Shown here one piece after another: positions 1 to 64,000 of a DNA stretch of 64,000 bases. The notes beneath the pieces are model-generated. The model saw only the letters and a program-made list of their open reading frames with translations. It did not search any database and had not been told where the DNA came from. Within the stretch, counting starts at the first letter, position 1. The number at the start of each line of letters is the position of its first letter. Source of the stretch: Phorcus lineatus (taxonomy: Eukaryota; Mollusca; Gastropoda; Trochida; Trochidae); the NCBI GenBank assembly GCA_921293015.1, contig OV121097.1:33481929-33545928 (forward strand), read 5' to 3'. The position numbers were made by a program, and so were the translations under genes.

Positions 1-69
1 AGCAATAAAAACTTCCTGTCAGATTCTTAATATGGGCTCCAGATTCGAGCTTAAACAGGTCCAGATAGC

Positions 70-87
70 CGATTTTGACCAAAATCG
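70..87. other. 18-bp dyad symmetry element in the monomer (example copy)
   Basis: CGATTTTG and CAAAATCG form a perfect 8-bp inverted repeat separated by AC, and the element recurs in most monomers. Variants break one arm without a matching change in the other: T73A (the CGAATTTG haplotype), G77A, A82C and C86T. Pairing is therefore not strictly maintained. A dyad this tight suits a dimeric DNA-binding protein better than a cruciform, since a 2-nt loop is unfavourable. Binding is inference only. Confidence 0.75.
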
Positions 88-108
88 CGGAAAAAGACTA
101 AGTCGAAT

Positions 109-118
109 ATATGCATAT
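109..118. other. Palindrome ATATGCATAT, with a TGCATATT direct repeat 39 bp downstream (example copy)
   Basis: ATATGCATAT at 109-118 is a perfect 10-bp palindrome. The octamer TGCATATT at 112-119 recurs at 151-158, preceded by an A-run. The core TGCATA is present in essentially every monomer I read, including those altered at neighbouring sites 108 (T, A or C) and 148. It is therefore among the most constant parts of the unit. A binding site is possible but not shown. Confidence 0.7.
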
Positions 119-6241: not shown

Positions 6242-8945
6242 AGCAATAAAAAATTCCTGTCAGATTATTGGTATGGGCTCCAGATTCGAGCTTAAACAGG
6301 TCCAGATAGCCGATTTTGACCAAAATCGCGGAAAAAAACTAAGTCGAATATATGCATATTGTTGTAGCGAGCGTGATAACTTTCTTAAAAATGCATATTT
6401 CTAAACCAAACTTTCATCAAATGTACATCACAATGTGTTCTATCGATTGAGCAATAAAAAATTCCTGTCAGATTCTTGGTATGGGCTCCAGATTCGAGCT
6501 TAAACAGGTCCAGATAGCCGATTTTGACCAAAATCGCGGAAAAAGACTAAGTCGAATATATGCATATTGTTGTAGCAAGCGTAATAACTTTCTTAAAAAT
6601 GCATATTTCTAAACCAAACTTTCATCAAATGTACATCACAATGTGTTCTATCGATTGAGCAATAAAAAAATCCTGTCAGATTATTGGTATGGGCTCCAGA
6701 TTCGAGCTTAAACAGGTCCAGATAGCCGATTTTGACCAAAATCGCGGAAAAAGACTAAGTCGAAAATATGCATATTGTTGTAGCGAGCGTGATAACTTTC
6801 TTAAAAATGCATATTTCTAAACCAAACTTTCATCAAATGTACATCACAATGTGTTCTATCGATTGAGCAATAACAAATTCCTGTCAGATTCTTGGTATGG
6901 GCTCCAGATTCGAGCTTAAACAGGTCCAGATAGCCGATTTTGACCAAAATCGCAGAAAAAGACTAAGTCAAATATATGCATATTGTTGTAGCGAGCGTGA
7001 TAACTTTCTTAAAAATGCATATTTCTGAACCAAACTTTCATCAAATGTACATCACAATGTGTTCTATCGATTGAGCAATAAAAACTTCCTGTCAGATTCT
7101 TGGTTTGGGCTCCAGATTCGAGCTTAAACAGGTCCACATAGCCGATTTTGACCAAAATCGCAGAAAAAGACTAAGTCAAATATATGCATATTGTTGTAGC
7201 GAGCGTGATAACTTTCTTAAAAATGCATATTTCTGAACCAAACTTTCATCAAATGTACATCACAATGTGTTCTATCGATTGAGCAATAAAAAATTCCTGT
7301 CAGATTTTTAATATGGGCTCCAGATTCGAGCTTAAACAGGTCCAGATAGCCGATTTTGACCAAAATCGCGGAAAAAGACTAAGTCGAACATATGCATATT
7401 GTTGTAGCGAGCGTGATAACTTTCTTAAAAATGCATATTTCTGAACCAAACTTTCATCAAATGTACATCACAATGTGTTCTATCGATTGAGCAATAAAAA
7501 ATTCCTGTCAGATTATTGGTATGGGCTCCAGATTCGAGCTTAAACAGGTCCAGATAGCCGAATTTGACCAAAATCGCGGAAAAAGACTAAGTCGAAAATA
7601 TGCATATTGTTGTAGCGAGCGTGATAACTTTCTTAAAAATGCATATTTCTGAACCAAACTTTCATCAAATGTACATCACAATGTGTTCTATCGATTGAGC
7701 AATAAAAAATTCCTGTCAGATTATTGGTATGGGCTCCAGATTCGAGCTTAAACAGGTCCAGATAGCCGATTTTGACCAAAATCGCGGAAAAAGACTAAGT
7801 CGAATATATGCATATTGTTGTAGCGAGCGTGATAACTTTCTTAAAAATGCATATTTCTAAACCAAACTTTCATCAAATGTACATCACAATGTGTTCTATC
7901 GATTGAGCAATAAAAAAATCCTGTCAGATTCTTGGTATGGGCTCCAGATTCGAGCTTAAACAGGTCCAGATAGCCGATTTTGACCAAAATCGCGGAAAAA
8001 GACTAAGTCGAATATATGCATATTGTTGTAGCGAGCGTGATAACTTTCTTAAAAATGCATATATCTGAACAAAACTTTCATCAAATGTACATCACAATGT
8101 GTTCTATCGATTGAGCAATAAAAAATTCCTGTCAGATTTTTGGTATGGGCTCCAGATTCGAGCTTAAACAGGTCCAGATAGCCGATTTTGACCAAAATCG
8201 CGGAAAAAGACTAAGTCGAATATATGCATATTGTTGTAGCGAGCGTGATAACTTTCTTAGAAATGCATATTTCTAAACCAAACTTTCATCAAATGTACAT
8301 CACAATGTGTTCTATCGATTGAGCAATAAAAAATTCCTGTCAGATTCTTAATATGGGCTCCAGATTCGAGCTTAAACAGGTCCAGATAGCCGATTTTGAC
8401 CAAAATCGCGGAAAAAGACTAAGTCGAATATATGCATATTGTTGTAGCGAGCGTGATAACTTTCTTAAAAATGCATATTTCTAAACCAAACTTTCATCAA
8501 ATGTACATCACAATGTGTTCTATCGATTGAGCAATAAAAAATTCCTGTCAGATTATTGGTATGGGCTCCAGATTCGAGCTTAAACAGGTCCAGATAGCCG
8601 AATTTGACCAAAATCGTGGAAAAAGACTAAGTCGAACATATGCATATTGTTGTAGCGAGCGTGATAACTTTCTTAAAAATGCATATTTCTGAACCAAACT
8701 TTCATCAAATGTACATCACAATGTGTTCTATCGATTGAGCAATAAAAAATTCCTGTCAGATTATTGGTATGGGCTCCAGATTCGAGCTTAAACAGGTCCA
8801 GATAGCCGATTTTGACCAAAATCGCGGAAAAAGACTAAGTCGAATATATGCATATTGTTGTAGCGAGCGTGATAACTTTCTTAAAAATGCATATTTCTGA
8901 ACCAAACTTTCATCAAATGTACATCACAATGTGTTCTATCGATTG
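6242..8945. repeat. 13-mer higher-order repeat, copy 1 (2704 bp)
   Basis: The thirteen monomers carry an ordered set of variants: attattgg; cttgg with GCAAGCG; aaaaaaat with GAAAATATG; aacaaatt with CGCAG and CAAAT; aaaaactt with TTTGGG and CACATAG; ttttaatatggg with GAACAT; CGAATTTG; attattgg; aaaaaaat with GAACAAAAC; tttttgg with TTAGAAATG; cttaatatggg; CGAATTTG with CGTGG; attattgg. The same order follows directly at 8946..11649. Differences I saw are few: extra A in GGAAAAAAACT near 6334 (G96A), GCGTAATAAC near 6581, GAAAAT versus GAACAT near 7594 and ATATATCTG near 8061. Confidence 0.9.
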
Positions 8946-11649
8946 AGCAATAAAAAATTCCTGTCAGATTATTGGTATGGGCTCCAGATTCGAGCTTAAA
9001 CAGGTCCAGATAGCCGATTTTGACCAAAATCGCGGAAAAAGACTAAGTCGAATATATGCATATTGTTGTAGCGAGCGTGATAACTTTCTTAAAAATGCAT
9101 ATTTCTAAACCAAACTTTCATCAAATGTACATCACAATGTGTTCTATCGATTGAGCAATAAAAAATTCCTGTCAGATTCTTGGTATGGGCTCCAGATTCG
9201 AGCTTAAACAGGTCCAGATAGCCGATTTTGACCAAAATCGCGGAAAAAGACTAAGTCGAATATATGCATATTGTTGTAGCAAGCGTGATAACTTTCTTAA
9301 AAATGCATATTTCTAAACCAAACTTTCATCAAATGTACATCACAATGTGTTCTATCGATTGAGCAATAAAAAAATCCTGTCAGATTATTGGTATGGGCTC
9401 CAGATTCGAGCTTAAACAGGTCCAGATAGCCGATTTTGACCAAAATCGCGGAAAAAGACTAAGTCGAAAATATGCATATTGTTGTAGCGAGCGTGATAAC
9501 TTTCTTAAAAATGCATATTTCTAAACCAAACTTTCATCAAATGTACATCACAATGTGTTCTATCGATTGAGCAATAACAAATTCCTGTCAGATTCTTGGT
9601 ATGGGCTCCAGATTCGAGCTTAAACAGGTCCAGATAGCCGATTTTGACCAAAATCGCAGAAAAAGACTAAGTCAAATATATGCATATTGTTGTAGCGAGC
9701 GTGATAACTTTCTTAAAAATGCATATTTCTGAACCAAACTTTCATCAAATGTACATCACAATGTGTTCTATCGATTGAGCAATAAAAACTTCCTGTCAGA
9801 TTCTTGGTTTGGGCTCCAGATTCGAGCTTAAACAGGTCCACATAGCCGATTTTGACCAAAATCGCAGAAAAAGACTAAGTCAAATATATGCATATTGTTG
9901 TAGCGAGCGTGATAACTTTCTTAAAAATGCATATTTCTGAACCAAACTTTCATCAAATGTACATCACAATGTGTTCTATCGATTGAGCAATAAAAAATTC
10001 CTGTCAGATTTTTAATATGGGCTCCAGATTCGAGCTTAAACAGGTCCAGATAGCCGATTTTGACCAAAATCGCGGAAAAAGACTAAGTCGAACATATGCA
10101 TATTGTTGTAGCGAGCGTGATAACTTTCTTAAAAATGCATATTTCTGAACCAAACTTTCATCAAATGTACATCACAATGTGTTCTATCGATTGAGCAATA
10201 AAAAATTCCTGTCAGATTATTGGTATGGGCTCCAGATTCGAGCTTAAACAGGTCCAGATAGCCGAATTTGACCAAAATCGCGGAAAAAGACTAAGTCGAA
10301 CATATGCATATTGTTGTAGCGAGCGTGATAACTTTCTTAAAAATGCATATTTCTGAACCAAACTTTCATCAAATGTACATCACAATGTGTTCTATCGATT
10401 GAGCAATAAAAAATTCCTGTCAGATTATTGGTATGGGCTCCAGATTCGAGCTTAAACAGGTCCAGATAGCCGATTTTGACCAAAATCGCGGAAAAAGACT
10501 AAGTCGAATATATGCATATTGTTGTAGCGAGCGTGATAACTTTCTTAAAAATGCATATTTCTAAACCAAACTTTCATCAAATGTACATCACAATGTGTTC
10601 TATCGATTGAGCAATAAAAAAATCCTGTCAGATTCTTGGTATGGGCTCCAGATTCGAGCTTAAACAGGTCCAGATAGCCGATTTTGACCAAAATCGCGGA
10701 AAAAGACTAAGTCGAATATATGCATATTGTTGTAGCGAGCGTGATAACTTTCTTAAAAATGCATATTTCTGAACAAAACTTTCATCAAATGTACATCACA
10801 ATGTGTTCTATCGATTGAGCAATAAAAAATTCCTGTCAGATTTTTGGTATGGGCTCCAGATTCGAGCTTAAACAGGTCCAGATAGCCGATTTTGACCAAA
10901 ATCGCGGAAAAAGACTAAGTCGAATATATGCATATTGTTGTAGCGAGCGTGATAACTTTCTTAGAAATGCATATTTCTAAACCAAACTTTCATCAAATGT
11001 ACATCACAATGTGTTCTATCGATTGAGCAATAAAAAATTCCTGTCAGATTCTTAATATGGGCTCCAGATTCGAGCTTAAACAGGTCCAGATAGCCGATTT
11101 TGACCAAAATCGCGGAAAAAGACTAAGTCGAATATATGCATATTGTTGTAGCGAGCGTGATAACTTTCTTAAAAATGCATATTTCTAAACCAAACTTTCA
11201 TCAAATGTACATCACAATGTGTTCTATCGATTGAGCAATAAAAAATTCCTGTCAGATTATTGGTATGGGCTCCAGATTCGAGCTTAAACAGGTCCAGATA
11301 GCCGAATTTGACCAAAATCGTGGAAAAAGACTAAGTCGAACATATGCATATTGTTGTAGCGAGCGTGATAACTTTCTTAAAAATGCATATTTCTGAACCA
11401 AACTTTCATCAAATGTACATCACAATGTGTTCTATCGATTGAGCAATAAAAAATTCCTGTCAGATTATTGGTATGGGCTCCAGATTCGAGCTTAAACAGG
11501 TCCAGATAGCCGATTTTGACCAAAATCGCGGAAAAAGACTAAGTCGAATATATGCATATTGTTGTAGCGAGCGTGATAACTTTCTTAAAAATGCATATTT
11601 CTAAACCAAACTTTCATCAAATGTACATCACAATGTGTTCTATCGATTG
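8946..11649. repeat. 13-mer higher-order repeat, copy 2 (2704 bp)
   Basis: This is a direct tandem continuation of 6242..8945, with the same 13 diagnostic monomers in the same order. From 9154 onward it also forms the left part of the longer 19-mer unit, so the two HOR levels overlap. This means the 13-mer duplication arose first and a 19-monomer segment including most of copy 2 was duplicated later (inference from nesting). Confidence 0.9.
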
Positions 11650-13105
11650 AGCAATAAAAAATTCCTGTCAGATTCTTGGTTTGGGCTCCAGATTCGAGCT
11701 TAAACAGGTCCACATAGCCGAATTTGACCAAAATCGTGGAAAAAGACTAAGTCGAACATATGCATATTGTTGTAGCGAGCGTGATAACTTTCTTAAAAAT
11801 GCATATTTCTGAACCAAACTTTCATCAAATGTACATCACAATGTGTTCTATCGATTGAGCAATAAAAAATTCCTGTCAGATTATTGGTATGGGCTCCAGA
11901 TTCGAGCTTAAACAGGTCCAGATAGCCGATTTTGACCAAAATCGCGGAAAAAGACTAAGTCGAATATATGCATATTGTTGTAGCGAGCGTGATAACTTTC
12001 TTAAAAATGCATATTTCTAAACCAAACTTTCATCAAATGTACATCACAATGTGTTCTATCGATTGAGCAATAAAAAATTCCTGTCAGATTCTTGGTATGG
12101 GCTCCAGATTCGAGCTTAAACAGGTCCAGATAGCCGATTTTGACCAAAATCGCGGAAAAAGACTAAGTCGAACATATGCATATTGTTGTAGCGAGCGTGA
12201 TAACTTTCTTAAAAATGCATATTTCTGAACCAAACTTTCATCAAATGTACATCACAATGTGTTCTATCGATTGAGCAATAAAAAATTCCTGTCAGATTAT
12301 TGGTATGGGCTCCAGATTCGAGCTTAAACAGGTCCAGATAGCCGAATTTGACCAAAATCGTGGAAAAAGACTAAGTCGAACATATGCATATTGTTGTAGC
12401 GAGCGTGATAACTTTCTTAAAAATGCATATTTCTGAACCAAACTTTCATCAAATGTACATCACAATGTGTTCTATCGATTGAGCAATAAAAAATTCCTGT
12501 CAGATTATTGGTATGGGCTCCAGATTCGAGCTTAAACAGGTCCAGATAGCCGATTTTGACCAAAATCGCAGAAAAAGACTAAGTCAAATATATGCATATT
12601 GTTGTAGCGAGCGTGATAACTTTCTTAAAAATGCATATTTCTGAACCAAACTTTCATCAAATGTACATCACAATGTGTTCTATCGATTGAGCAATAAAAA
12701 ATTCCTGTCAGATTATTGGTATGGGCTCCAGATTCGAGCTTAAACAGGTCCAGATAGCCGATTTTGACCAAAATCGCGGAAAAAGACTAAGTCGAATATA
12801 TGCATATTGTTGTAGCGAGCGTGATAACTTTCTTAAAAATGCATATTTCTAAACCAAACTTTCATCAAATGTACATCACAATGTGTTCTATCGATTGAGC
12901 AATAAAAAATTCCTGTCAGATTCTTGGTATGGGCTCCAGATTCGAGCTTAAACAGGTCCAGATAGCCGATTTTGACCAAAATCGCAGAAAAAGACTAAGT
13001 CAAATATATGCATATTGTTGTAGCGAGCGTGATAACTTTCTTAAAAATGCATATTTCTGAACCAAACTTTCATCAAATGTACATCACAATGTGTTCTATC
13101 GATTG
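9154..13105. repeat. 19-mer higher-order repeat, copy 1 (3952 bp)
   Basis: It starts at the cttgg plus GCAAGCG monomer, runs through the last twelve monomers of 13-mer copy 2, and adds seven: TTTGGG with CACATAG, CGAATTTG and CGTGG (11650); attattgg (11858); cttgg with GAACAT (12066); CGAATTTG with CGTGG (12274); CGCAG with CAAAT (12482); attattgg (12690); cttgg with CGCAG and CAAAT (12898). The whole set recurs in order at 13106..17057. Confidence 0.92.
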
Positions 13106-36817: not shown

Positions 36818-37441
36818 AGCAATAAAAAATTCCTGTCAGATTATTGGTATGGGCTCCAGATTCGAGCTTAAACAGGTCCAGATAGCCGAATTTGACCAAA
36901 ATCGTGGAAAAAGACTAAGTCGAACATATGCATATTGTTGTAGCGAGCGTGATAACTTTCTTAAAAATGCATATTTCTGAACCAAACTTTCATCAAATGT
37001 ACATCACAATGTGTTCTATCGATTGAGCAATAAAAAATTCCTGTCAGATTATTGGTATGGGCTCCAGATTCGAGCTTAAACAGGTCCAGATAGCCGATTT
37101 TAACCAAAATCGCGGAAAAAGACTAAGTAAAATATATGCATATTGTTGTAGCGAGCGTGATAACTTTCTTAAAAATGCATATTTCTAAACCAAACTTTCA
37201 TCAAATGTACATCACAATGTGTTCTATCGATTGAGCAATAAAAAATTCCTGTCAGATTCTTGGTATGGGCTCCAGATTCGAGCTTAAACAGGTCCAGATA
37301 GCCGATTTTGACCAAAATCGCAGAAAAAGACTAAGTAAAATATATGCATATTGTTGTAGCGAGCGTGATAACTTTCTTAAAAATGCATATTTCTGAACCA
37401 AACTTTCATCAAATGTACATCACAATGTGTTCTATCGATTG
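34946..37441. repeat. 12-monomer source block of a 4367-bp-distant duplication
   Basis: These twelve monomers run from CGAATTTG through the AACTTTC/TAATAATG, attaatgg, CACATAG, AAGTTTC, tttttgg/AAAATTGCGG, CGAATTTG and TTTTAACC units to cttgg/CGCAG/GTAAAAT. They recur in the same order, with the same sub-variants, at 39313..41808. The offset is 21 monomers minus one base, because the 207-bp monomer lies between. Confidence 0.88.
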
Positions 37442-37649
37442 AGCAATAAAAAATTCCTGTCAGATTCTTAATATGGGCTCCAGATTCGAGCTTAAACAGG
37501 TCCAGATAGCCGATTTTGACCAAAATCGCGGAAAAAGACTAAGTCGAATATATGCATATTGTTGTAGCGAGCGTGATAACTTTCTTAAAAATGCATATTT
37601 CTAAACCAAACTTTCATCAAATGTACATCACAATGTGTTCTATCGATTG
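36818..37649. repeat. Third, broken start of the 18-mer series (4 monomers)
   Basis: CGAATTTG and TTTTAACC/GTAAAAT repeat the first two positions of the 18-mer. The third monomer instead carries CGCAG, GTAAAAT and CTGAACC, and the fourth is cttaatatggg with ordinary AACTTTC. The series is then cut by the cgaattt block at 37650. Confidence 0.8.
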
Positions 37650-38897: not shown

Positions 38898-39104
38898 AGC
38901 AATAAAAATTCCTGTCAGATTCTTGGTATGGGCTCCAGATTCGAGCTTAAACAGGTCCAGATAGCCGATTTTGACCAAAATCGCGGAAAAAGACTAAGTC
39001 GAATATATGCATATTGTTGTAGCGAGCGTGATAACTTTCTTAAAAATGCATATTTCTGAACTAAACTTTCATCAAATGTACATCACAATGTGTTCTATCG
39101 ATTG
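38898..39104. repeat. 207-bp monomer with a one-base deletion
   Basis: The A-run after AGCAAT is one A shorter (AGCAATAAAAATTCC), giving the only 207-bp unit in the window and returning the phase to zero. It sits exactly at the right edge of the cgaattt block, so it may mark the recombination joint. It carries CTGAACTAAAC, shared with the next monomer (39105) and with 34738. Confidence 0.88.
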
Positions 39105-49504: not shown

Positions 49505-52500
49505 AGCACTAAGAATTTCCTGTCAGATTCTTGGTATGGGCTCCAGATTCGAGCTTAAACAGGTCCAGATAGCCGATTTTGACCAAAATCGCGGAAAAAG
49601 ACTAAGTCGAATATATGCATATTGTTGTAGCGAGCGTGATAACTTTCTTAAAAATGCATATTTCTAAACCAAACTTTCATCAAATGTACATCACAATGTG
49701 TTCTATCGATTGAGCAATAAAAAATTCCTGTCAGATTATTGGTATGGGCTCCAGATTCGAGCTTAAACAGGTCCACATAGCCGATTTTGACCAAAATCGC
49801 AGAAAAAGACCAAGTCGAATATATGCATATTGTTGTAGCGAGCGTGATAACTTTCTTAAAAATGCATATTTCTGAACCAAACTTTCATCAAATGTACATC
49901 ACAATGTGTTCTATCGATTGAGCAATAAAAAATTCCTGTCAGATTCTTAATATGGGCTCCAGATTCGAGCTTAAACAGGTCCAGATAGCCGATTTTGACC
50001 AAAATCGCGGAAAAAGACTAAGTCGAATATATGCATATTGTTGTAGCGAGCGTGATAACTTTCTTAAAAATGCATATTTCTAAACCAAACTTTCATCAAA
50101 TGTACATCACAATGTGTTCTATCGATTAAGCAATAAAAAATTCCTGTCAGATTATTGGTATGGGCTCCAGATTCGAGCTTAAACAGGTCCAGATAGCCGA
50201 TTTTGACCAAAATCGCGGAAAAAGACTAAGTCGAATATATGCATATTGTTGTAGCGAGCGTGATAACTTTCTTAAAAATGCATATTTCTGAACCAAACTT
50301 TCATCAAATGTACATCACAATGTGTTCTATCGATTGAGCAATAAAAAATTCCTGTCAGATTAATGGTATGGGCTCCAGATTCGAGCTTAAACAGGTCCAG
50401 ATAGCCGATTTTGACCAAAATCGCGGAAAAAGACTAAGTCGAATATATGCATATTGTTGTAGCGAGCGTGATAACTTTCTTAAAAATGCATATTTCTGAA
50501 CCAAACTTTCATCAAATGTACATCACAATGTGTTCTATCGATTGAGCAATAAACAATTCCTGTCAGATTTTTGGTATGGGCTCCAGATTCGAGCTTAAAC
50601 AGGTCCAGATAGCCGATTTTGACCACAATCGCGGAAAAAGACTAAGTCGAATATATGCATATTGTTGTAGCGAGCGTGATAACTTTCTTAAAAATGCATA
50701 TTTCTGAACCAAACTTTCATCAAATGTACATCACAATGTGTTCTATCGATTGAGCAATAAAAAAATCCTGTCAGATTATTGGTATGGGCTCCAGATTCGA
50801 GCTTAAACAGGTCCACATAGCCGATTTTGACCAAAATCGCAGAAAAAGGCCAAGTCGAATATATGCATATTGTTGTAGCGAGCGTGATAACTTTCTTAAA
50901 AATGCATATTTCTAAACCAAACTTTCATCAAATGTACATCACAATGTGTTCTATCGATTGAGCACTAAGAATTTCCTGTCAGATTCTTGGTATGGGCTCC
51001 AGATTCGAGCTTAAACAGGTCCAGATAGCCGATTTTGACCAAAATCGCGGAAAAAGACTAAGTCAAATATATGCATATTGTTGTAGAGAGCGTGATAACT
51101 TTCTTAAAAATGCATATTTCTAAACCAAACTTTCATCAAATGTACATCACAATGTGTTCTATCGATTGAGCAATACGAATTTCCTGTCAGATTCTTGGTA
51201 TGGGCTCCAGATTCGAGCTTAAACAGGTCCAGATAGCCGATTTTGACCAAAATCGCGGAAAAAGACTAAGTCGAATATATGCATATTGTTGTAGCGAGCG
51301 TGATAACTTTCTTAAAAATGCATATTTCTAAACCAAACTTTCATCAAATGTACATCACAATGTGTTCTATCGATTGAGCAATAAACAATTCCTGTCAGAT
51401 TATTGGTATGGGCTCCAGATTCGAGCTTAAACAGGTCCACATAGCCGATTTTGACCAAAATCGCAAAAAAAGACTAAGTCGAATATATGCATATTGTTGT
51501 AGCGAGCGTGATAACTTTCTTAAAAATGCATATTTCTGAACCAAACTTTCATCAAATGTACATCACAATGTGTTCTATCGATTGAGCAATAAAAAATTCC
51601 TGTCAGATTCTTAATATGGGCTCCAGATTCGAGCTTAAACAGGTCCAGATAGCCGATTTTGACCAAAATCGCGGAAAAAGACTAAGTCGAATATATGCAT
51701 ATTGTTGTAGCGAGCGTGATAACTTTCTTAAAAATGCATATTTCTAAACCAAACTTTCATCAAATGTACATCACAATGTGTTCTATCGATTAAGCAATAA
51801 AAAATTCCTGTCAGATTATTGGTATGGGCTCCAGATTCGAGCTTAAACAGGTCCAGATAGCCGATTTTGACCACAATCGCGGAAAAAGACTAAGTCGAAT
51901 ATATGCATATTGTTGTAGCGAGCGTGATAACTTTCTTAAAAATGCATATTTCTAAACCAAACTTTCATCAAATGTACATCACAATGTGTTCTATCGATTG
52001 AGCAATAAAAAATTCCTGTCAGATTCTTGGTATGGGCTCCAGATTCGAGCTTAAACAGGTCCAGATAGCCGATTTTGACCAAAATCGCGGAAAAAGACTA
52101 AGTCGAATATATGCATATTGTTGTAGCGAGCGTGATAACTTTCTTAAAAATGCATATTTCTAAACCAAACTTTCATCAAATGTACATCACAATGTGTTCT
52201 ATCGATTGAGCAATAAACAATTCCTGTCAGATTATTGGTATGGGCTCCAGATTCGAGCTTAAACAGGTCCACATAGCCGATTTTGACCAAAATCGCAAAA
52301 AAAGACTAAGTCGAATATATGCATATTGTTGTAGCGAGCGTGATAACTTTCTTAAAAATGCATATTTCTGAACCAAACTTTCATCAAATGTACATCACAA
52401 TGTGTTCTATCGATTGAGCAATAAAAAATTCCTGTCAGATTCTTAATATGGGCTCCAGATTCGAGCTTAAACAGGTCCACATAGCCGATTTTGACCAAAA

Positions 52501-54289
52501 TCGCGGAAAAAGACTAAGTCGAATATATGCATATTGTTGTAGCGAGCGTGATAACTTTCTTAAAAATGCATATTTCTAAACCAAACTTTCATCAAATGTA
52601 CATCACAATGTGTTCTATCGATTAAGCAATAAAAAATTCCTGTCAGATTATTGGTATGGGCTCCAGATTCGAGCTTAAACAGGTCCAGATAGCCGATTTT
52701 GACCAAAATCGCGGAAAAAGACTAAGTCGAATATATGCATATTGTTGTAGCGAGCGTGATAACTTTCTTAAAAATGCATATTTCTAAACCAAACTTTCAT
52801 CAAATGTACATCACAATGTGTTCTATCGATTGAGCAATAAAAAATTCCTGTCAGATTCTTGGTATGGGCTCCAGATTCGAGCTTAAACAGGTCCAGATAG
52901 CCGATTTTGACCAAAATCGCGGAAAAAGACTAAGTCGAATATATGCATATTGTTGTAGCGAGCGTGATAACTTTCTTAAAAATGCATATTTCTAAACCAA
53001 ACTTTCATCAAATGTACATCACAATGTGTTCTATCGATTGAGCAATAAACAATTCCTGTCAGATTATTGGTATGGGCTCCAGATTCGAGCTTAAACAGGT
53101 CCAGATAGCCGATTTTGACCAAAATCGCAGAAAAAGACTAAGTCGAATATATGCATATTGTTGTAGCGAGCGTGATAACTTTCTTAAAAATGCATATTTC
53201 TGAACCAAACTTTCATCAAATGTACAACACAATGTGTTCTATTGATTGAGCAATAAAAAAATTCCTGTCAGATTATTGGTATGGGCTCCAGATTCGAGCT
53301 TAAACAGGTCCAGATAGCCGATTTTGACCAAAATCGCGGAAAAAGACTAAGTCGAATATATGCATATTGTTGTAGCGAGCGTGATAACTTTCTTAAAAAT
53401 GCATATTTCTGAACCAAACTTTCATCAAATGTACATCACAATGTGTTCTATCGATTGAGCAATAAAAAATTCCTGTCAGATTAATGGTATGGGCTCCAGA
53501 TTCGAGCTTAAACAGGTCCAGATAGCCGATTTTGACCACAATCGCGGAAAAAGACTAAGTCGAATATATGCATATTGTTGTAGCGAGCGTGATAACTTTC
53601 TTAAAAATGCATATTTCTGAACCAAACTTTCATCAAATGTACATCACAATGTGTTCTATCGATTGAGCAATAAACAATTCCTGTCAGATTCTTGGTATGG
53701 GCTCCAGATTCGAGCTTAAACAGGTCCACATAGCCGATTTTGACCAAAATCGCAGAAAAAGACCAAGTCGAATATATGCATATTGTTGTAGCGAGCGTGA
53801 TAACTTTCTTAAAAATGCATATTTCTAAACCAAACTTTCATCAAATGTACATCACAATGTGTTCTATCAATTGAGCACTAAGAATTTCCTGTCAGATTCT
53901 TGGTATGGGCTCCAGATTTGAGCTTAAACAGGTCCAGATAGCCGATTTTGACCAAAATCGCAGAAAAAGACTAAGTCAAATAAATGCATATTGTTGTAGC
54001 GAGCGTGATAACTTTCTTAAAAATGCATATTTCTAAACCAAACTTTCATCAAATGTACATCACAATGTGTTCTATCGATTGAGCAATAAAAAATTCCTGT
54101 CAGATTCTTGGTATGGGCTCCAGATTCGAGCTTAAACAGGTCCAGATAGCCGATTTTGACCAAAATCGCGGGAAAAGACTAAGTCGAATATATGCATATT
54201 GTTGTAGCGAGCGTGATAACTTTCTTAAAAATGCATATTTCTAAACCAAACTTTCATCAAATGTACATCACAATGTGTTCTATCGATTG
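49505..54289. repeat. 23-mer higher-order repeat, copy 1 (4785 bp)
   Basis: It begins at the monomer GCACTAAGAATTT/cttgg. Landmarks are CACATAG/GACCAAG (49713), CGATTAAG (end of 49921), attaatgg (50337), tttttgg/CCACAATC (50545), AAGGCCAAG (50753), CAAAT/TAGAGAGCG (50961), acgaattt (51169), CGCAAAAAAAGAC (51377 and 52209), TACAACAC with ATTGATTG (53041), the 209-bp unit (53249), ATCAATTG (end of 53666), GATTTGAG with CAAATAAATG (53874) and CGCGGGAAAAG (54082). The same series restarts at 54290. Confidence 0.93.
53249..53457. repeat. 209-bp monomer, inserted A (HOR copy 1)
   Basis: The A-run after AGCAAT has seven A before TTCC instead of six. The preceding monomer ends ATTGATTG after TACAACAC. 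The same linked trio of changes recurs at 57826 and 61155, so one insertion was copied by HOR duplication. Confidence 0.9.
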
Positions 54290-57200
54290 AGCACTAAGAA
54301 TTTCCTGTCAGATTCTTGGTATGGGCTCCAGATTCGAGCTTAAACAGGTCCAGATAGCCGATTTTGACCAAAATCGCGGAAAAAGACTAAGTCGAATATA
54401 TGCATATTGTTGTAGCGAGCGTGATAACTTTCTTAAAAATGCATATTTCTAAACCAAACTTTCATCAAATGTACATCACAATGTGTTCTATCGATTGAGC
54501 AATAAAAAATTCCTGTCAGATTATTGGTATGGGCTCCAGATTCGAGCTTAAACAGGTCCACATAGCCGATTTTGACCAAAATCGCAGAAAAAGACCAAGT
54601 CGAATATATGCATATTGTTGTAGCGAGCGTGATAACTTTCTTAAAAATGCATATTTCTGAACCAAACTTTCATCAAATGTACATCACAATGTGTTCTATC
54701 GATTGAGCAATAAAAAATTCCTGTCAGATTCTTAATATGGGCTCCAGATTCGAGCTTAAACAGGTCCAGATAGCCGATTTTGACCAAAATCGCGGAAAAA
54801 GACTAAGTCGAATATATGCATATTGTTGTAGCGAGCGTGATAACTTTCTTAAAAATGCATATTTCTAAACCAAACTTTCATCAAATGTACATCACAATGT
54901 GTTCTATCGATTAAGCAATAAAAAATTCCTGTCAGATTATTGGTATGGGCTCCAGATTCGAGCTTAAACAGGTCCAGATAGCCGATTTTGACCAAAATCG
55001 CGGAAAAAGACTAAGTCGAATATATGCATATTGTTGTAGCGAGCGTGATAACTTTCTTAAAAATGCATATTTCTGAACCAAACTTTCATCAAATGTACAT
55101 CACAATGTGTTCTATCGATTGAGCAATAAAAAATTCCTGTCAGATTAATGGTATGGGCTCCAGATTCGAGCTTAAACAGGTCCAGATAGCCGATTTTGAC
55201 CAAAATCGCGGAAAAAGACTAAGTCGAATATATGCATATTGTTGTAGCGAGCGTGATAACTTTCTTAAAAATGCATATTTCTAAACCAAACTTTCATCAA
55301 ATGTACATCACAATGTGTTCTATCGATTGAGCAATAAACAATTCCTGTCAGATTTTTGGTATGGGCTCCAGATTCGAGCTTAAACAGGTCCAGATAGCCG
55401 ATTTTGACCACAATCGCGGAAAAAGACTAAGTCGAATATATGCATATTGTTGTAGCGAGCGTGATAACTTTCTTAAAAATGCATATTTCTGAACCAAACT
55501 TTCATCAAATGTACATCACAATGTGTTCTATCGATTGAGCAATAAAAAAATCCTGTCAGATTATTGGTATGGGCTCCAGATTCGAGCTTAAACAGGTCCA
55601 CATAGCCGATTTTGACCAAAATCGCAGAAAAAGGCCAAGTCGAATATATGCATATTGTTGTAGCGAGCGTGATAACTTTCTTAAAAATGCATATTTCTAA
55701 ACCAAACTTTCATCAAATGTACATCACAATGTGTTCTATCGATTGAGCACTAAGAATTTCCTGTCAGATTCTTGGTATGGGCTCCAGATTCGAGCTTAAA
55801 CAGGTCCAGATAGCCGATTTTGACCAAAATCGCGGAAAAAGACTAAGTCAAATATATGCATATTGTTGTAGAGAGCGTGATAACTTTCTTAAAAATGCAT
55901 ATTTCTAAACCAAACTTTCATCAAATGTACATCACAATGTGTTCTATCGATTGAGCAATACGAATTTCCTGTCAGATTCTTGGTATGGGCTCCAGATTCG
56001 AGCTTAAACAGGTCCAGATAGCCGATTTTGACCAAAATCGCGGAAAAAGACTAAGTCGAATATATGCATATTGTTGTAGCGAGCGTGATAACTTTCTTAA
56101 AAATGCATATTTCTAAACCAAACTTTCATCAAATGTACATCACAATGTGTTCTATCGATTGAGCAATAAACAATTCCTGTCAGATTATTGGTATGGGCTC
56201 CAGATTCGAGCTTAAACAGGTCCACATAGCCGATTTTGACCAAAATCGCAAAAAAAGACTAAGTCGAATATATGCATATTGTTGTAGCGAGCGTGATAAC
56301 TTTCTTAAAAATGCATATTTCTGAACCAAACTTTCATCAAATGTACATCACAATGTGTTCTATCGATTGAGCAATAAAAAATTCCTGTCAGATTATTGGT
56401 ATGGGCTCCAGATTCGAGCTTAAACAGGTCCAGATAGCCGATTTTGACCACAATCGCGGAAAAAGACTAAGTCGAATATATGCATATTGTTGTAGCGAGC
56501 GTGATAACTTTCTTAAAAATGCATATTTCTAAACCAAACTTTCATCAAATGTACATCACAATGTGTTCTATCGATTGAGCAATAAAAAATTCCTGTCAGA
56601 TTCTTGGTATGGGCTCCAGATTCGAGCTTAAACAGGTCCAGATAGCCGATTTTGACCAAAATCGCGGAAAAAGACTAAGTCGAATATATGCATATTGTTG
56701 TAGCGAGCGTGATAACTTTCTTAAAAATGCATATTTCTAAACCAAACTTTCATCAAATGTACATCACAATGTGTTCTATCGATTGAGCAATAAACAATTC
56801 CTGTCAGATTATTGGTATGGGCTCCAGATTCGAGCTTAAACAGGTCCACATAGCCGATTTTGACCAAAATCGCAAAAAAAGACTAAGTCGAATATATGCA
56901 TATTGTTGTAGCGAGCGTGATAACTTTCTTAAAAATGCATATTTCTGAACCAAACTTTCATCAAATGTACATCACAATGTGTTCTATCGATTGAGCAATA
57001 AAAAATTCCTGTCAGATTCTTAATATGGGCTCCAGATTCGAGCTTAAACAGGTCCACATAGCCGATTTTGACCAAAATCGCGGAAAAAGACTAAGTCGAA
57101 TATATGCATATTGTTGTAGCGAGCGTGATAACTTTCTTAAAAATGCATATTTCTAAACCAAACTTTCATCAAATGTACATCACAATGTGTTCTATCGATT

Positions 57201-58866
57201 AAGCAATAAAAAATTCCTGTCAGATTATTGGTATGGGCTCCAGATTCGAGCTTAAACAGGTCCAGATAGCCGATTTTGACCAAAATCGCGGAAAAAGACT
57301 AAGTCGAATATATGCATATTGTTGTAGCGAGCGTGATAACTTTCTTAAAAATGCATATTTCTAAACCAAACTTTCATCAAATGTACATCACAATGTGTTC
57401 TATCGATTGAGCAATAAAAAATTCCTGTCAGATTCTTGGTATGGGCTCCAGATTCGAGCTTAAACAGGTCCAGATAGCCGATTTTGACCAAAATCGCGGA
57501 AAAAGACTAAGTCGAATATATGCATATTGTTGTAGCGAGCGTGATAACTTTCTTAAAAATGCATATTTCTAAACCAAACTTTCATCAAATGTACATCACA
57601 ATGTGTTCTATCGATTGAGCAATAAACAATTCCTGTCAGATTATTGGTATGGGCTCCAGATTCGAGCTTAAACAGGTCCAGATAGCCGATTTTGACCAAA
57701 ATCGCAGAAAAAGACTAAGTCGAATATATGCATATTGTTGTAGCGAGCGTGATAACTTTCTTAAAAATGCATATTTCTGAACCAAACTTTCATCAAATGT
57801 ACAACACAATGTGTTCTATTGATTGAGCAATAAAAAAATTCCTGTCAGATTATTGGTATGGGCTCCAGATTCGAGCTTAAACAGGTCCAGATAGCCGATT
57901 TTGACCAAAATCGCGGAAAAAGACTAAGTCGAATATATGCATATTGTTGTAGCGAGCGTGATAACTTTCTTAAAAATGCATATTTCTGAACCAAACTTTC
58001 ATCAAATGTACATCACAATGTGTTCTATCGATTGAGCAATAAAAAATTCCTGTCAGATTAATGGTATGGGCTCCAGATTCGAGCTTAAACAGGTCCAGAT
58101 AGCCGATTTTGACCACAATCGCGGAAAAAGACTAAGTCGAATATATGCATATTGTTGTAGCGAGCGTGATAACTTTCTTAAAAATGCATATTTCTGAACC
58201 AAACTTTCATCAAATGTACATCACAATGTGTTCTATCGATTGAGCAATAAACAATTCCTGTCAGATTCTTGGTATGGGCTCCAGATTCGAGCTTAAACAG
58301 GTCCACATAGCCGATTTTGACCAAAATCGCAGAAAAAGACCAAGTCGAATATATGCATATTGTTGTAGCGAGCGTGATAACTTTCTTAAAAATGCATATT
58401 TCTAAACCAAACTTTCATCAAATGTACATCACAATGTGTTCTATCAATTGAGCACTAAGAATTTCCTGTCAGATTCTTGGTATGGGCTCCAGATTTGAGC
58501 TTAAACAGGTCCAGATAGCCGATTTTGACCAAAATCGCAGAAAAAGACTAAGTCAAATAAATGCATATTGTTGTAGCGAGCGTGATAACTTTCTTAAAAA
58601 TGCATATTTCTAAACCAAACTTTCATCAAATGTACATCACAATGTGTTCTATCGATTGAGCAATAAAAAATTCCTGTCAGATTCTTGGTATGGGCTCCAG
58701 ATTCGAGCTTAAACAGGTCCAGATAGCCGATTTTGACCAAAATCGCGGGAAAAGACTAAGTCGAATATATGCATATTGTTGTAGCGAGCGTGATAACTTT
58801 CTTAAAAATGCATATTTCTAAACCAAACTTTCATCAAATGTACATCACAATGTGTTCTATCAATTG
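54290..58866. repeat. 23-mer higher-order repeat, copy 2, lacking one monomer (4577 bp)
   Basis: The monomers match copy 1 in order at an offset of 4785 bp up to 56369. After that the offset is 4577 bp, because the equivalent of 51585..51792 (cttaatatggg ending CGATTAAG) is missing. Besides this deletion I saw only CTAAACC for CTGAACC in the 55122 monomer and ATCAATTG for ATCGATTG near 58861. The near identity over more than 4.5 kb indicates a recent tandem duplication. Confidence 0.93.
57826..58034. repeat. 209-bp monomer, inserted A (HOR copy 2)
   Basis: It has the same seven-A run and the same TACAACAC/ATTGATTG lead-in as 53249, at an offset of 4577 bp. It shifts the monomer phase by a further base. 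Confidence 0.9.
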
Positions 58867-59698
58867 AGCAATAAAAAATTCCTGTCAGATTCTTGGTATG
58901 GGCTCCAGATTCGAGCTTAAACAGGTCCAGATAGCCGATTTTGACCAAAATCGCGGAAAAAGACTAAGTCGAATATATGCATATTGTTGTAGCGAGCGTA
59001 ATAACTTTCTTAAAAATGCATATTTCTAAACCAAACTTTCATCAAATGTACATCACAATGTGTTCTATCGATTGAGCAATAAAAAATTCCTGTCAGATTA
59101 TTGGTATGGGCTCCAGATTCGAGCTTAAACAGGTCCAGATAGCCGATTTTGACCAAAATCGCGGAAAAAGACTAAGTCGAATATATGCATATTGTTGTAG
59201 CGAGCGTGATAACTTTCTTAAAAATGCATATTTCTAAACCAAACTTTCATCAAATGTACATCACAATGTGTTCTATCGATTGAGCAATAAACAATTCCTG
59301 TCAGATTATTGGTATGGGCTCCAGATTCGAGCTTAAACAGGTCCACATAGCCGATTTTGACCAAAATCGCAAAAAAAGACTAAGTCGAATATATGCATAT
59401 TGTTGTAGCGAGCGTGATAACTTTCTTAAAAATGCATATTTCTAAACCAAACTTTCATCAAATGTACATCACAATGTGTTCTATCGATTGAGCAATAAAA
59501 AATTCCTGTCAGATTCTTAATATGGGCTCCAGATTCGAGCTTAAACAGGTCCAGATAGCCGATTTTGACCAAAATCGCGGAAAAAGACTAAGTCGAATAT
59601 ATGCATATTGTTGTAGCGAGCGTGATAACTTTCTTAAAAATGCATATTTCTAAACCAAACTTTCATCAAATGTACATCACAATGTGTTCTATCGATTA
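58867..59698. repeat. Four-monomer joint between the 22-mer and its partial copy
   Basis: The order is: cttgg with GCGTAATAAC (58867); attattgg (59075); aaacaatt/attattgg/CACATAG/CGCAAAAAAAGAC ending CTAAACC (59283); cttaatatggg ending CGATTAAG (59491). The last two resemble 51377 and 51585, including the type of monomer that copy 2 of the 23-mer has lost. The downstream copy may therefore descend from an intact 23-mer. Confidence 0.8.
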
Positions 59699-62611
59699 AG
59701 CAATAAAAAATTCCTGTCAGATTATTGGTATGGGCTCCAGATTCGAGCTTAAACAGGTCCAGATAGCCGATTTTGACCACAATCGCGGAAAAAGACTAAG
59801 TCGAATATATGCATATTGTTGTAGCGAGCGTGATAACTTTCTTAAAAATGCATATTTCTAAACCAAACTTTCATCAAATGTACATCACAATGTGTTCTAT
59901 CGATTGAGCAATAAAAAATTCCTGTCAGATTCTTGGTATGGGCTCCAGATTCGAGCTTAAACAGGTCCAGATAGCCGATTTTGACCAAAATCGCGGAAAA
60001 AGACTAAGTCGAATATATGCATATTGTTGTAGCGAGCGTGATAACTTTCTTAAAAATGCATATTTCTAAACCAAACTTTCATCAAATGTACATCACAATG
60101 TGTTCTATCGATTGAGCAATAAACAATTCCTGTCAGATTATTGGTATGGGCTCCAGATTCGAGCTTAAACAGGTCCACATAGCCGATTTTGACCAAAATC
60201 GCAAAAAAAGACTAAGTCGAATATATGCATATTGTTGTAGCGAGCGTGATAACTTTCTTAAAAATGCATATTTCTGAACCAAACTTTCATCAAATGTACA
60301 TCACAATGTGTTCTATCGATTGAGCAATAAAAAATTCCTGTCAGATTCTTAATATGGGCTCCAGATTCGAGCTTAAACAGGTCCACATAGCCGATTTTGA
60401 CCAAAATCGCGGAAAAAGACTAAGTCGAATATATGCATATTGTTGTAGCGAGCGTGATAACTTTCTTAAAAATGCATATTTCTAAACCAAACTTTCATCA
60501 AATGTACATCACAATGTGTTCTATCGATTAAGCAATAAAAAATTCCTGTCAGATTATTGGTATGGGCTCCAGATTCGAGCTTAAACAGGTCCAGATAGCC
60601 GATTTTGACCAAAATCGCGGAAAAAGACTAAGTCGAATATATGCATATTGTTGTAGCGAGCGTGATAACTTTCTTAAAAATGCATATTTCTAAACCAAAC
60701 TTTCATCAAATGTACATCACAATGTGTTCTATCGATTGAGCAATAAAAAATTCCTGTCAGATTCTTGGTATGGGCTCCAGATTCGAGCTTAAACAGGTCC
60801 AGATAGCCGATTTTGACCAAAATCGCGGAAAAAGACTAAGTCGAATATATGCATATTGTTGTAGCGAGCGTGATAACTTTCTTAAAAATGCATATTTCTA
60901 AACCAAACTTTCATCAAATGTACATCACAATGTGTTCTATCGATTGAGCAATAAACAATTCCTGTCAGATTATTGGTATGGGCTCCAGATTCGAGCTTAA
61001 ACAGGTCCAGATAGCCGATTTTGACCAAAATCGCAGAAAAAGACTAAGTCGAATATATGCATATTGTTGTAGCGAGCGTGATAACTTTCTTAAAAATGCA
61101 TATTTCTGAACCAAACTTTCATCAAATGTACAACACAATGTGTTCTATTGATTGAGCAATAAAAAAATTCCTGTCAGATTATTGGTATGGGCTCCAGATT
61201 CGAGCTTAAACAGGTCCAGATAGCCGATTTTGACCAAAATCGCGGAAAAAGACTAAGTCGAATATATGCATATTGTTGTAGCGAGCGTGATAACTTTCTT
61301 AAAAATGCATATTTCTGAACCAAACTTTCATCAAATGTACATCACAATGTGTTCTATCGATTGAGCAATAAAAAATTCCTGTCAGATTAATGGTATGGGC
61401 TCCAGATTCGAGCTTAAACAGGTCCAGATAGCCGATTTTGACCACAATCGCGGAAAAAGACTAAGTCGAATATATGCATATTGTTGTAGCGAGCGTGATA
61501 ACTTTCTTAAAAATGCATATTTCTGAACCAAACTTTCATCAAATGTACATCACAATGTGTTCTATCGATTGAGCAATAAACAATTCCTGTCAGATTCTTG
61601 GTATGGGCTCCAGATTCGAGCTTAAACAGGTCCACATAGCCGATTTTGACCAAAATCGCAGAAAAAGACCAAGTCGAATATATGCATATTGTTGTAGCGA
61701 GCGTGATAACTTTCTTAAAAATGCATATTTCTAAACCAAACTTTCATCAAATGTACATCACAATGTGTTCTATCAATTGAGCACTAAGAATTTCCTGTCA
61801 GATTCTTGGTATGGGCTCCAGATTTGAGCTTAAACAGGTCCAGATAGCCGATTTTGACCAAAATCGCAGAAAAAGACTAAGTCAAATAAATGCATATTGT
61901 TGTAGCGAGCGTGATAACTTTCTTAAAAATGCATATTTCTAAACCAAACTTTCATCAAATGTACATCACAATGTGTTCTATCGATTGAGCAATAAAAAAT
62001 TCCTGTCAGATTCTTGGTATGGGCTCCAGATTCGAGCTTAAACAGGTCCAGATAGCCGATTTTGACCAAAATCGCGGGAAAAGACTAAGTCGAATATATG
62101 CATATTGTTGTAGCGAGCGTGATAACTTTCTTAAAAATGCATATTTCTAAACCAAACTTTCATCAAATGTACATCACAATGTGTTCTATCAATTGAGCAA
62201 TAAAAAATTCCTGTCAGATTCTTGGTATGGGCTCCAGATTCGAGCTTAAACAGGTCCAGATAGCCGATTTTGACCAAAATCGCGGAAAAAGACTAAGTCG
62301 AATATATGCATATTGTTGTAGCGAGCGTAATAACTTTCTTAAAAATGCATATTTCTAAACCAAACTTTCATCAAATGTACATCACAATGTGTTCTATCGA
62401 TTGAGCAATAAAAAATTCCTGTCAGATTATTGGTATGGGCTCCAGATTCGAGCTTAAACAGGTCCAGATAGCCGATTTTGACCAAAATCGCGGAAAAAGA
62501 CTAAGTCGAATATATGCATATTGTTGTAGCGAGCGTGATAACTTTCTTAAAAATGCATATTTCTAAACCAAACTTTCATCAAATGTACATCACAATGTGT
62601 TCTATCGATTG
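59699..62611. repeat. 14-monomer copy of 56370..59282 (2913 bp)
   Basis: It repeats the end of 23-mer copy 2 and the first two joint monomers at an offset of 3329 bp. Included are CCACAATC (59699), CGCAAAAAAAGAC (60115), TACAACAC/ATTGATTG, the 209-bp unit, GATTTGAG/CAAATAAATG, CGCGGGAAAAG with ATCAATTG, and GCGTAATAAC (near 62328). I saw no differences at the diagnostic sites, including those private to copy 2. It was therefore copied after copy 2 acquired them and is the youngest event I can order. Confidence 0.92.
61155..61363. repeat. 209-bp monomer, inserted A (HOR copy 3)
   Basis: It is a third copy of the insertion-bearing monomer, 3329 bp after 57826, with the same flanking variants. 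It shows that the 59699..62611 block descends from the 23-mer series. Confidence 0.9.
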
Positions 62612-63859
62612 AGCAATAAAAAATTCCTGTCAGATTCTTGGTATGGGCTCCAGATTCGAGCTTAAACAGGTCCAGATAGCCGATTTTGACCAAAATCGCG
62701 GAAAAAGACTAAGTCGAAAATATGCATATTGTTGTAGCGAGCGTGATAACTTTCTTAAAAATGCATATTTCTAAACCAAACTTTCATCAAATGTACATCA
62801 CAATGTGTTCTATCGATTGAGCAATAAAAAATTCCTGTCAGATTCTTGGTATGGGCTCCAGATTCGAGCTTAAACAGGTCCAGATAGCCGATTTTGACCA
62901 AAATCGCGGAAAAAGACTAAGTCAAATATATGCATATTGTTGTAGCGAGCGTGATAACTTTCTTAAAAATGCATATTTCTGAACCAAACTTTCATCAAAT
63001 GTACATCACAATGTGTTCTATCGATTGAGCAATAAACAATTCCTGTCAGATTCTTGGTATGGGCTCCAGATTCGAGCTTAAACAGGTCCAGATAGCCGAT
63101 TTTGACCAAAATCGCGGAAAAAGACTAAGTCGAATATATGCATATTGTTGTAGCGAGCGTGATAACTTTCTTAAAAATGCATATTTCTAAACCAAACTTT
63201 CATCAAATGTACATCACAATGTGTTCTGTCGATTGAGCAATAAGAAATTCCTGTCAGATTCTTGGTATGGGCTCCAGATTCGAGCTTAAACAGGTCCAGA
63301 TAGCCGATTTTGACCAAAATCGCGGAAAAAGACTAAGTCGAATATATGCATATTGTTGTAGCGAGCGTGATAACTTTCTTAAAAATGCATATTTCTAAAC
63401 CAAACTTTTATCAAATGTACATCACAATGTGTTCTATCGATTGAGCAATACGAATTTCCTGTCAGATTCTTGGTATGGGCTCCAGATTCGAGCTTAAACA
63501 GGTCCAGATAGCCGATTTTGACCAAAATCGCGGAAAAAGACTAAGTCGAAAATATGCATATTGTTGTAGCGAGCGTGATAACTTTCTTAAAAATGCATAT
63601 TTCTGAACCAAACTTTCATCAAATGTACATCACAATGTGTTCTATCGATTGAGCAATAACAAATTCCTGTCAGATTCTTGGTATGGGCTCCAGATTCGAG
63701 CTTAAACAGGTCCAGATAGCCGATTTTGACCAAAATCGCGGAAAAAGACTAAGTCGAATATATGCATATTGTTGTAGCGAGCGTGATAACTTTCTTAAAA
63801 ATGCATATTTCTAAACCAAACTTTCATCAAATGTACATCACAATGTGTTCTGTCGATTG
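62612..63859. repeat. Right-edge mixed monomers (6 units)
   Basis: All six have cttgg. GAAAATATG, a hallmark of the left 10 kb of the window, reappears at 62612 and 63444. The pair 63028 and 63236 (ending TCTGTCGATTG, then the aagaaatt module) recurs at 63652 and 63860, an offset of 624 bp, so a 3-monomer repeat may begin here and continue past the window. The TCTGTCGATTG change removes the ClaI site. Confidence 0.8.
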
Positions 63860-64000
63860 AGCAATAAGAAATTCCTGTCAGATTCTTGGTATGGGCTCCA
63901 GATTCGAGCTTAAACAGGTCCAGATAGCCGATTTTGACCAAAATCGCGGAAAAAGACTAAGTCGAATATATGCATATTGTTGTAGCGAGCGTGATAACTT
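63860..64000. repeat. Partial monomer at the window end (141 bp)
   Basis: It starts AGCAATAAGAAATTCC with cttgg and CGCGG, and stops at GTGATAACTT because the window ends. The array evidently continues to the right. The left edge likewise begins exactly at a monomer by chance of my chosen phase. Confidence 0.95.

What the first reader, a model, noticed from the sequence alone, without database searches (positions are those of the whole stretch)
1..64000. 64 kb pure satellite with layered, non-uniform higher-order repeats
Diagnostic variants recur in order at offsets of 8, 13, 16, 18, 19, 21, 22 and 23 monomers in different parts of the array. Units are nested (13 inside 19; 8 inside 18; a 4-monomer cassette inside 23). 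This is unlike an array with one fixed HOR length. It looks like a record of successive local segment duplications, which can be ordered by nesting. I do not recognise the 208-bp family, so it may be undescribed.
Basis: partly seen in the sequence, partly recalled or inferred. Interest (0 to 1): 0.75.

Follow-up and report, generated by a model that had tools for sequence, protein, structure and literature searches.

The report
Satellite array grown by local duplications
The window lies inside a half-megabase block of a 208-base repeat in a nearly one-gigabase genome, and its units recur in order because stretches of varying length were copied next to themselves, which is how such repeat arrays are already thought to grow.

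Summary
The window is 307 full head-to-tail 208-bp monomers, 117 distinct. Runs of identical monomers recur at all eight offsets named (8, 13, 16, 18, 19, 21, 22, 23) and at 11, 32 and 38; none was reached at the same offset in 1000 shuffles. The window lies in a block spanning about 500 kb, C39:33371607-33871460, of a 957.8-Mb genome. In 250 kb of it (1201 monomers) I count 24 distinct near-complete tandem duplications of 4-19 monomers (shuffles: mean 1.06, maximum 5) and no strong match beyond 200 monomers (0 of 123). Some junction monomers are hybrids. One island (monomers 181-187) belongs to a subfamily otherwise common 255-350 kb away. Best explanation: repeated local out-of-register homologous repair or break-induced replication, as described for maize CentC and human alpha satellite. 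The 208-bp family matched nothing I could search, but no eukaryote repeat database was on hand. New member of a known kind. A centromeric role is plausible but untested. Reader: partly supported.

The parts
1..64000 (+). uninterrupted 208-bp satellite array, single orientation, 307 full monomers
   Evidence: array continues on both sides
6338..8898 (+). 13-monomer tandem duplication, first copy (m31-m43; partner +2704); this and the other match ends below are good to a few bases at best
   Evidence: 12.31 monomers, 3 mismatches
9108..13133 (+). 19-monomer tandem duplication, first copy (m44-m63; partner +3952)
   Evidence: 19.35 monomers, 1 mismatch, span/offset 1.02
12928..13135 (+). hybrid junction monomer m63: 5' part as m82, 3' part as m44
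   Evidence: differs from m82 only at 207-208 and from m44 only at 59, 75, 132
25067..27337 (+). 11-monomer tandem duplication, first copy (m121-m132; partner +2288)
   Evidence: 10.92 monomers, 1 mismatch
27280..27487 (+). mosaic monomer m132: 5' part as m131, 3' end as m121/m129
27355..28714 (+). block repeated at offset 8 (m132-m138); also m118-m124 at offset 8
   Evidence: scores 30.6 and 28.0, 1 and 0 mismatches
30043..33082 (+). 18-monomer repeat, first copy (m145-m159; partner +3744); contains the 8-monomer block
   Evidence: 14.61 monomers, 7 mismatches, span/offset 0.81
34764..37579 (+). 13.5 monomers repeated without mismatch at offset 21 (m167-m181; partner +4367)
   Evidence: 0 mismatches, span/offset 0.64
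37472..38926 (+). island m181-m187 of a different subfamily, between the two copies of the preceding part (first 108 bases of m181 also belong to the match)
   Evidence: relatives in C39:33777108-33844998 and contig C40
49431..51609 (+). repeat at offset 23 (m238-m248)
   Evidence: 10.47 monomers, 1 mismatch
51195..54284 (+). block m246-m261 repeated at offset 38; from m249 also at offset 22
   Evidence: 14.85 monomers, 1 mismatch; 11.98 monomers, 0 mismatches
56192..56399 (+). m271, a fusion of types m248 (5') and m249 (3'): loss of one monomer relative to the other copies
   Evidence: differs from m248 only at 204, 207, 208 and from m249 at 34, 59, 60, 132, 178
56370..59291 (+). 16-monomer tandem duplication, first copy (m271-m285; partner +3329)
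   Evidence: 14.05 monomers, 0 mismatches

Best explanation
This is the interior of one large block (spanning about 500 kb) of a 208-bp satellite on a chromosome-size contig of a eukaryotic genome. It grows and turns over by repeated local repair between out-of-register monomers of the same array: a broken or stalled end pairs with a nearby monomer, in phase with the 208-bp unit, and copies on, so that a stretch of often 4-20 monomers (0.8-4 kb) is duplicated next to itself. Successive events of different length nest inside one another, and no single higher-order unit takes over. Shown: local, in-phase tandem duplications of many lengths, some hybrid junction monomers, one one-monomer loss, and an island of a distant subfamily. 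Inferred: that the enzymatic route is break-induced replication or related sister-chromatid repair rather than reciprocal crossover alone, and that the block is the centromere or lies beside it.
For: Order not random: longest runs at 11 offsets, each reached at its offset in 0 of 1000 shuffles. Some tandem spans close to one offset. In 250 kb: 123 self-matches with score 25 or more, against 0 in each of 5 shuffles (shuffles scanned to offset 150, the data at all offsets); 119 of 123 at offsets up to 80 monomers, 4 at 81-200, 0 beyond. 24 distinct near-complete tandem duplications of 4-19 monomers (8 of them of 4 monomers; at most one difference per monomer), shuffle mean 1.06, maximum 5 of 200 shuffles. 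In phase: 1199 of 1201 anchor spacings are 205-210 bases, the other two 180 and 217. Hybrid or mosaic monomers m63, m132, m271. Exchange between monomers is general: 41 of 55 pairs of common variable sites show all four combinations, mean r2 0.014-0.069 by distance class. Island relatives: 99% over about 1.53 kb in the right-hand domain and 98-99% for near-full matches in C40, against 97% for an overlapping neighbouring stretch.
Against: Reciprocal unequal crossover predicts the same simple tandem junctions, so the route is not settled. With strictly identical monomers only 6 distinct complete duplications of 3 or more monomers are left (shuffle mean 1.70), 2 of them of 4 or more; the count of 24 depends on allowing one difference per monomer. 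Match comparison was made only at whole-monomer offsets. The island differs from its best sampled relative at 16 positions in m181-m186, so it is no fresh copy of a known source, and the 13.5-monomer copies could equally be a gene-conversion tract. No chromatin data, FISH, reads or second haplotype. Most of 33630001-33730000 and other stretches were only sampled. Whether other chromosomes carry the family was not resolved.
Confidence: 0.75

Rival explanations
1. Reciprocal unequal crossover between sister chromatids alone (Smith-type model) made the array, without break-induced replication.
For: Ten junctions with span equal to or a little above the offset and hybrid junction monomers are what unequal crossover gives.
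Against: The island of a distant subfamily lies between two mismatch-free copies, and many matches cover only part of their offset; these ask for a second process such as conversion or template switching. Not strong, because repeated crossovers could also leave partial copies.
Confidence: 0.35
2. Replication slippage of single monomers built the array.
For: Slippage is common in short tandem repeats (general knowledge). Up to 6 distinct one-monomer and 5 distinct two-monomer exact duplications are possible.
Against: Identical neighbours number 11 against about 40 in local shuffles, 0 of 500 as low, so one-monomer steps leave no excess; the long ordered runs need multi-monomer units.
Confidence: 0.05
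3. Excised circles of satellite were amplified (rolling circle) and reinserted.
For: Could explain the island and non-adjacent copies.
Against: No strong match at offsets beyond 200 monomers within 250 kb. Complete copies are adjacent; the longest train of one unit listed is about four copies of 4 monomers (offset 4, 13.2 monomers matched).
Confidence: 0.07
4. The nested pattern is an assembly artefact.
For: Satellite arrays are hard to assemble; a 39,727-bp contig C40 with the same satellite was left separate.
Against: Many different offsets with their own private variants; hybrids in phase; pattern continuous over 250 kb, and no N in the 20 stretches fetched.
Confidence: 0.07

Closest known systems
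Maize CentC arrays of centromere 10 (PMC4806543; sections 23 and 28 and passages of others read)
   Same: Irregular local HORs made by adjacent segmental duplication (a 10-monomer case is described), and loss of one monomer leaving a chimeric monomer.
   Different: No sequence comparison was made; CentC monomers are shorter (recalled). CentC arrays there are broken by CR retrotransposons; here one non-satellite insert was met in the parts read. Centromeric histone defines that region there; here nothing was tested.
Human alpha-satellite HORs (PMC8997354; section 5 and passages read)
   Same: Nested HORs, older divergent monomers at the edges; BIR and unequal exchange proposed; template switching suggested.
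   Different: No CENP-B box beyond chance here; no dominant HOR in the 250 kb; monomers far more alike (98.5% to consensus, against pairs of 50-70% within an alpha HOR).
Drosophila ananassae-subgroup peri/centromeric satellite Fam1 (PMC11917152; passages and first part of section 10 read)
   Same: Long, rarely interrupted arrays with HOR structure; monomer variants 109-411 bp.
   Different: No sequence was available to compare; the host genome here is 957.8 Mb.
Drosophila 1.688 satellite (PMC7642928; passages and first part of section 11 read)
   Same: Similar monomer length class (about 190 bp subfamily).

Membership tests
Satellite DNA array with higher-order repeats | long head-to-tail tandem array of one monomer | tested here: met
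Satellite DNA array with higher-order repeats | ordered multi-monomer units more alike to each other than neighbouring monomers | tested here: met
Satellite DNA array with higher-order repeats | one regular HOR dominating the array (typical of human arrays, not needed in all) | tested here: not met
   many offsets, none dominant in the window or in 250 kb; so it is the irregular form
Functional centromere | CENP-A / CENH3 occupancy | not testable with these tools
   sequence only
Functional centromere | one such block per chromosome | tested here: inconclusive
   matches listed on C39 and C40 only, but only 40 of 727 and 7 of 719 first-look candidates were scored; the follow-up search did not complete
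CENP-B-dependent satellite (alpha satellite type) | CENP-B box core, 9 fixed bases (pattern recalled, not from a call) | tested here: not met
   best site has 2 mismatches of 9, in the consensus and in the best of the window's 307 monomers; 104 of 500 base shuffles of the consensus do as well or better
Drosophila 1.688 satellite | sequence similarity to the family | tested here: inconclusive
   printed 50 letters reached by 146 and 63 of 1000 shuffles (+, -); recalled 359-bp letters by 465 and 30 of 1000; D. melanogaster letters only

The most novel reading that the evidence does not exclude
The array preserves intermediate steps of break-induced replication with template switching: a fork copied 13.5 monomers, switched to (or from) a domain some 300 kb away for seven monomers, and returned to its starting point, leaving two mismatch-free copies around an island of the distant subfamily. 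If so, one natural array would show both the step length of local expansion (mostly 0.8-4 kb) and the long-range switch that carries subfamilies between domains.
Probability: 0.15. Interest if true: 0.6.

Novelty: new member of a known kind. Interest (0 to 1): 0.33.

Why it matters
What sets the length of higher-order repeats, and whether they arise by crossover or by replication restart, is open. An array of very similar monomers with enough variants to mark many junctions, and no dominant unit to hide earlier steps, gives a sample of individual duplication lengths (24 distinct ones in 250 kb) and junctions against which models can be fitted. It is otherwise an ordinary satellite.

Tried and rejected
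Drosophila 1.688 membership, suggested by recalled motifs: inconclusive by sequence; I set it aside because the 957.8-Mb genome is far larger than those of the melanogaster group (recalled). Identity by text: six 17-21 letter pieces gave 0 papers; six 12-14 letter pieces gave 1 irrelevant paper; '208 bp' and '208-bp' searches gave nothing recognisable as this family by title and abstract start (1, 0, 7 and 3 papers; listings only, not opened). Plasmid and phage records: no match for window 1-2080. Viral contigs: 0 exact matches of a 22-mer. Genome contigs: 14 exact matches of a 17-mer, all in bacterial records, no more than chance by my own estimate. Rfam: 0 matches at gathering score in window 1-4000. 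No coding: 2 ORFs of 60 aa or more in 64 kb, 76 and 66 aa. Strand folding of one monomer no better than shuffles, z -0.02. I first read the shortage of identical neighbours (11 against about 40) as a minimum duplication length of about 0.8 kb. Counting events gives 6 distinct exact one-monomer and 5 two-monomer cases, against 26 and 25 in shuffles, so they cannot be told from chance and cannot be excluded: that claim is withdrawn. The score threshold cannot see single duplications of fewer than about 5 monomers. A second marker of the island, counted, came out 0 in every bin because my pattern was wrong; it is not used.
Full report
What is there. The 64-kb window is one uninterrupted head-to-tail array of a 208-bp unit, 35.5-36% G+C. 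I aligned 307 full monomers: 117 distinct sequences, mean identity to the consensus 98.5%, mean pairwise difference 5.29. No gene-like ORF (2 of 60 aa or more), no Rfam match in the first 4 kb, no CENP-B box beyond chance, no unusual fold of one monomer. The three monomers examined each carry a perfect 8-bp inverted repeat with a 2-nt spacer and ATGCAT-centred palindromes.

The order is not random. Exact runs of identical monomers recur at offsets 8, 11, 13, 16, 18, 19, 21, 22, 23, 32 and 38; the longest are 13 monomers at offsets 16 and 21. None of these runs was reached at its own offset in 1000 shuffles; a run of 4 at some offset from 1 to 59 occurred in 2 of 1000, so the exact runs of 4 at 13, 18 and 23 rest also on the mismatch-tolerant scores (53.2, 49.6, 51.4 against 19.7 for the best of 20 shuffles). 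At base resolution the 19 unit is a clean tandem duplication, 19.35 monomers matched at offset 19 with one mismatch, and 11, 13 and 16 are nearly complete (ratios 0.99, 0.95, 0.88). Offsets 32 and 38 are sums (13 + 19, 22 + 16). The best matches at 8, 18, 21, 22 and 23 cover 0.46-0.82 of their offset, so later events or gene conversion have overwritten part of them.

Junctions. Monomer 63, at the junction of the 19-unit copies, is a hybrid: its 5' part is that of monomer 82 and its 3' part that of monomer 44. Monomer 271 is a fusion of the types of 248 and 249 and marks the loss of one monomer in the middle of three copies of a block. Monomer 132 mixes two types. In the 250-kb stretch ten matches have a span at least as long as their offset; six of their junction intervals lie inside one monomer and four run across a monomer border. 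Matches were sought only at whole-monomer offsets, so the phase is judged from monomer lengths: 1199 of 1201 anchor spacings are 205-210 bases, the other two 180 and 217, which leaves little room for out-of-phase joins. 41 of 55 pairs of common variable sites show all four combinations. This fits homologous exchange in phase with the unit.

The surroundings. The window is C39:33481929-33545928 of a 957.8-Mb genome in 74 contigs; C39 is 44.39 Mb. The satellite begins abruptly at 33371607 and ends at 33871460; by eye the first and last monomers are more divergent. Between these ends I read 33371607-33376000, 33380001-33630000, 33693016-33696715, 33730001-33740000, 33797501-33803500, 33840866-33845000 and 33869001-33871460; the rest was only sampled with 500-800-base probes or seen through hits. 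One non-satellite stretch ends at 33840865 and starts between 33830501 and 33836001; the only ORF of 100 aa or more in the part read has no Pfam match. A 39,727-bp contig, C40, begins with at least 16.7 kb of the same satellite.

The pattern is general. In 250 kb (1201 monomers, 467 distinct) there are 123 strong self-matches, none in 5 shuffles: 0 at offsets 1-3, 9 at 4-7, 19 at 8-12, 17 at 13-18, 17 at 19-25, 25 at 26-40, 32 at 41-80, 4 at 81-200, 0 beyond (many are sums or copies of one another, single duplications shorter than about 5 monomers cannot reach this score, and the shuffles were scanned only to offset 150). Counting near-complete tandem duplications (all but one monomer of the unit, at most one difference per monomer, offsets up to 40) and collapsing copies gives 24 distinct ones of 4 to 19 monomers, 8 of them of 4 monomers, against a mean of 1.06 and a maximum of 5 in 200 local shuffles. 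With strictly identical monomers only 6 of 3 or more monomers remain (shuffle mean 1.70), 2 of them of 4 or more, so most duplications have already picked up changes. One search adds one nearly complete unit of 32 monomers. Copying is therefore local and of variable length, mostly 0.8-4 kb. Identical monomers side by side are rare (11 against about 40 in local shuffles, 0 of 500 as low), but one- and two-monomer duplications cannot be told from chance (6 and 5 distinct exact cases against 26 and 25 in shuffles), so no minimum length is proven.

The island. Monomers 181-186 carry a CGAATTT variant in the A-run, found in 0-17% of monomers per 10-kb bin up to 33.63 Mb and in 67-100% in the sampled bins from 33.76 Mb rightward (those bins hold 3 to 19 monomers). 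The island lies between two mismatch-free copies of 13.5 monomers. For six of the seven island monomers the closest relative outside the island in my sample is in the right-hand part: m182 has one a single change away at 33800119 and m183 one at 33798660; m181 ties with nearer monomers. A whole-genome search gave 99% at 33843214-33844741 and 98-99% for near-full matches on C40, against 97% for an overlapping neighbouring stretch (7 of 719 candidates scored). Base by base, m181-m186 differ from that stretch at 16 positions together, while m179, m180, m187 and m188 differ at 10, 10, 6 and 7 each. The island thus belongs to another domain's subfamily, but its exact source was not found and its age is not settled.

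Mutation. CpG is not depleted (8 sites, observed/expected 1.18), yet 10 of 16 possible CpG transitions are seen as variants, against 15 of 59 other C/G transitions. This hints at cytosine methylation in the host.

How it works. The most likely process is repeated local, out-of-register homologous repair, by break-induced replication or by unequal sister exchange, acting on a large satellite block, with occasional conversion and at least one contact with a distant domain. A review describes this model for centromeric satellites, including nested HORs, disordered edges and template switching (PMC8997354, section 5 and passages). Maize CentC shows the same two signatures, an adjacent duplication of 10 monomers and a one-monomer loss leaving a chimeric monomer (PMC4806543, sections 23 and 28 and passages); its authors favour alternative end-joining, which is a further route I did not separate. 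Similar long HOR arrays are reported in the ananassae subgroup of Drosophila (PMC11917152, passages and part of section 10). That block size, position and decayed edges suit a centromere is an inference; I could not test occupancy or other chromosomes.

Novelty. The family may be undescribed: text searches and the collections searched gave no match, but none of these is a eukaryotic repeat library. The kind of array is known. Interest is moderate, because the irregular state and dense variants make individual duplication steps countable.

Noticed in passing
window 37472-38926: Seven monomers of a subfamily otherwise typical of the right-hand part of the block; their lengths vary from 205 to 210 bases.
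   Followed up: partly
C40 (39,727 bp), 1-17000: A small contig that starts inside the same satellite; either an unplaced piece of this block, another haplotype or another chromosome.
   Followed up: partly
L081:1-4865 (C39:33836001-33840865): Non-satellite stretch inside the block ending in an 11/22-bp tandem repeat; at least 4.9 kb and at most about 10.4 kb, possibly a transposable element.
   Followed up: partly
monomer CpG sites, for example positions 58, 59, 75 and 98: CpG sites are often hit by transitions (10 of 16 possible against 15 of 59 for other C/G), suggesting cytosine methylation in the host.
   Followed up: partly
monomer positions 207-208: GG/AA seems to be exchanged as a pair: each base is A in 54 of 307 window monomers, a two-base change that spreads as one marker.
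   Followed up: no
L082:8808-9000 (C39:33877808-33878000): Short tandem repeats of 8, 13 and 21 bp, about 6 kb outside the right edge of the satellite block.
   Followed up: no
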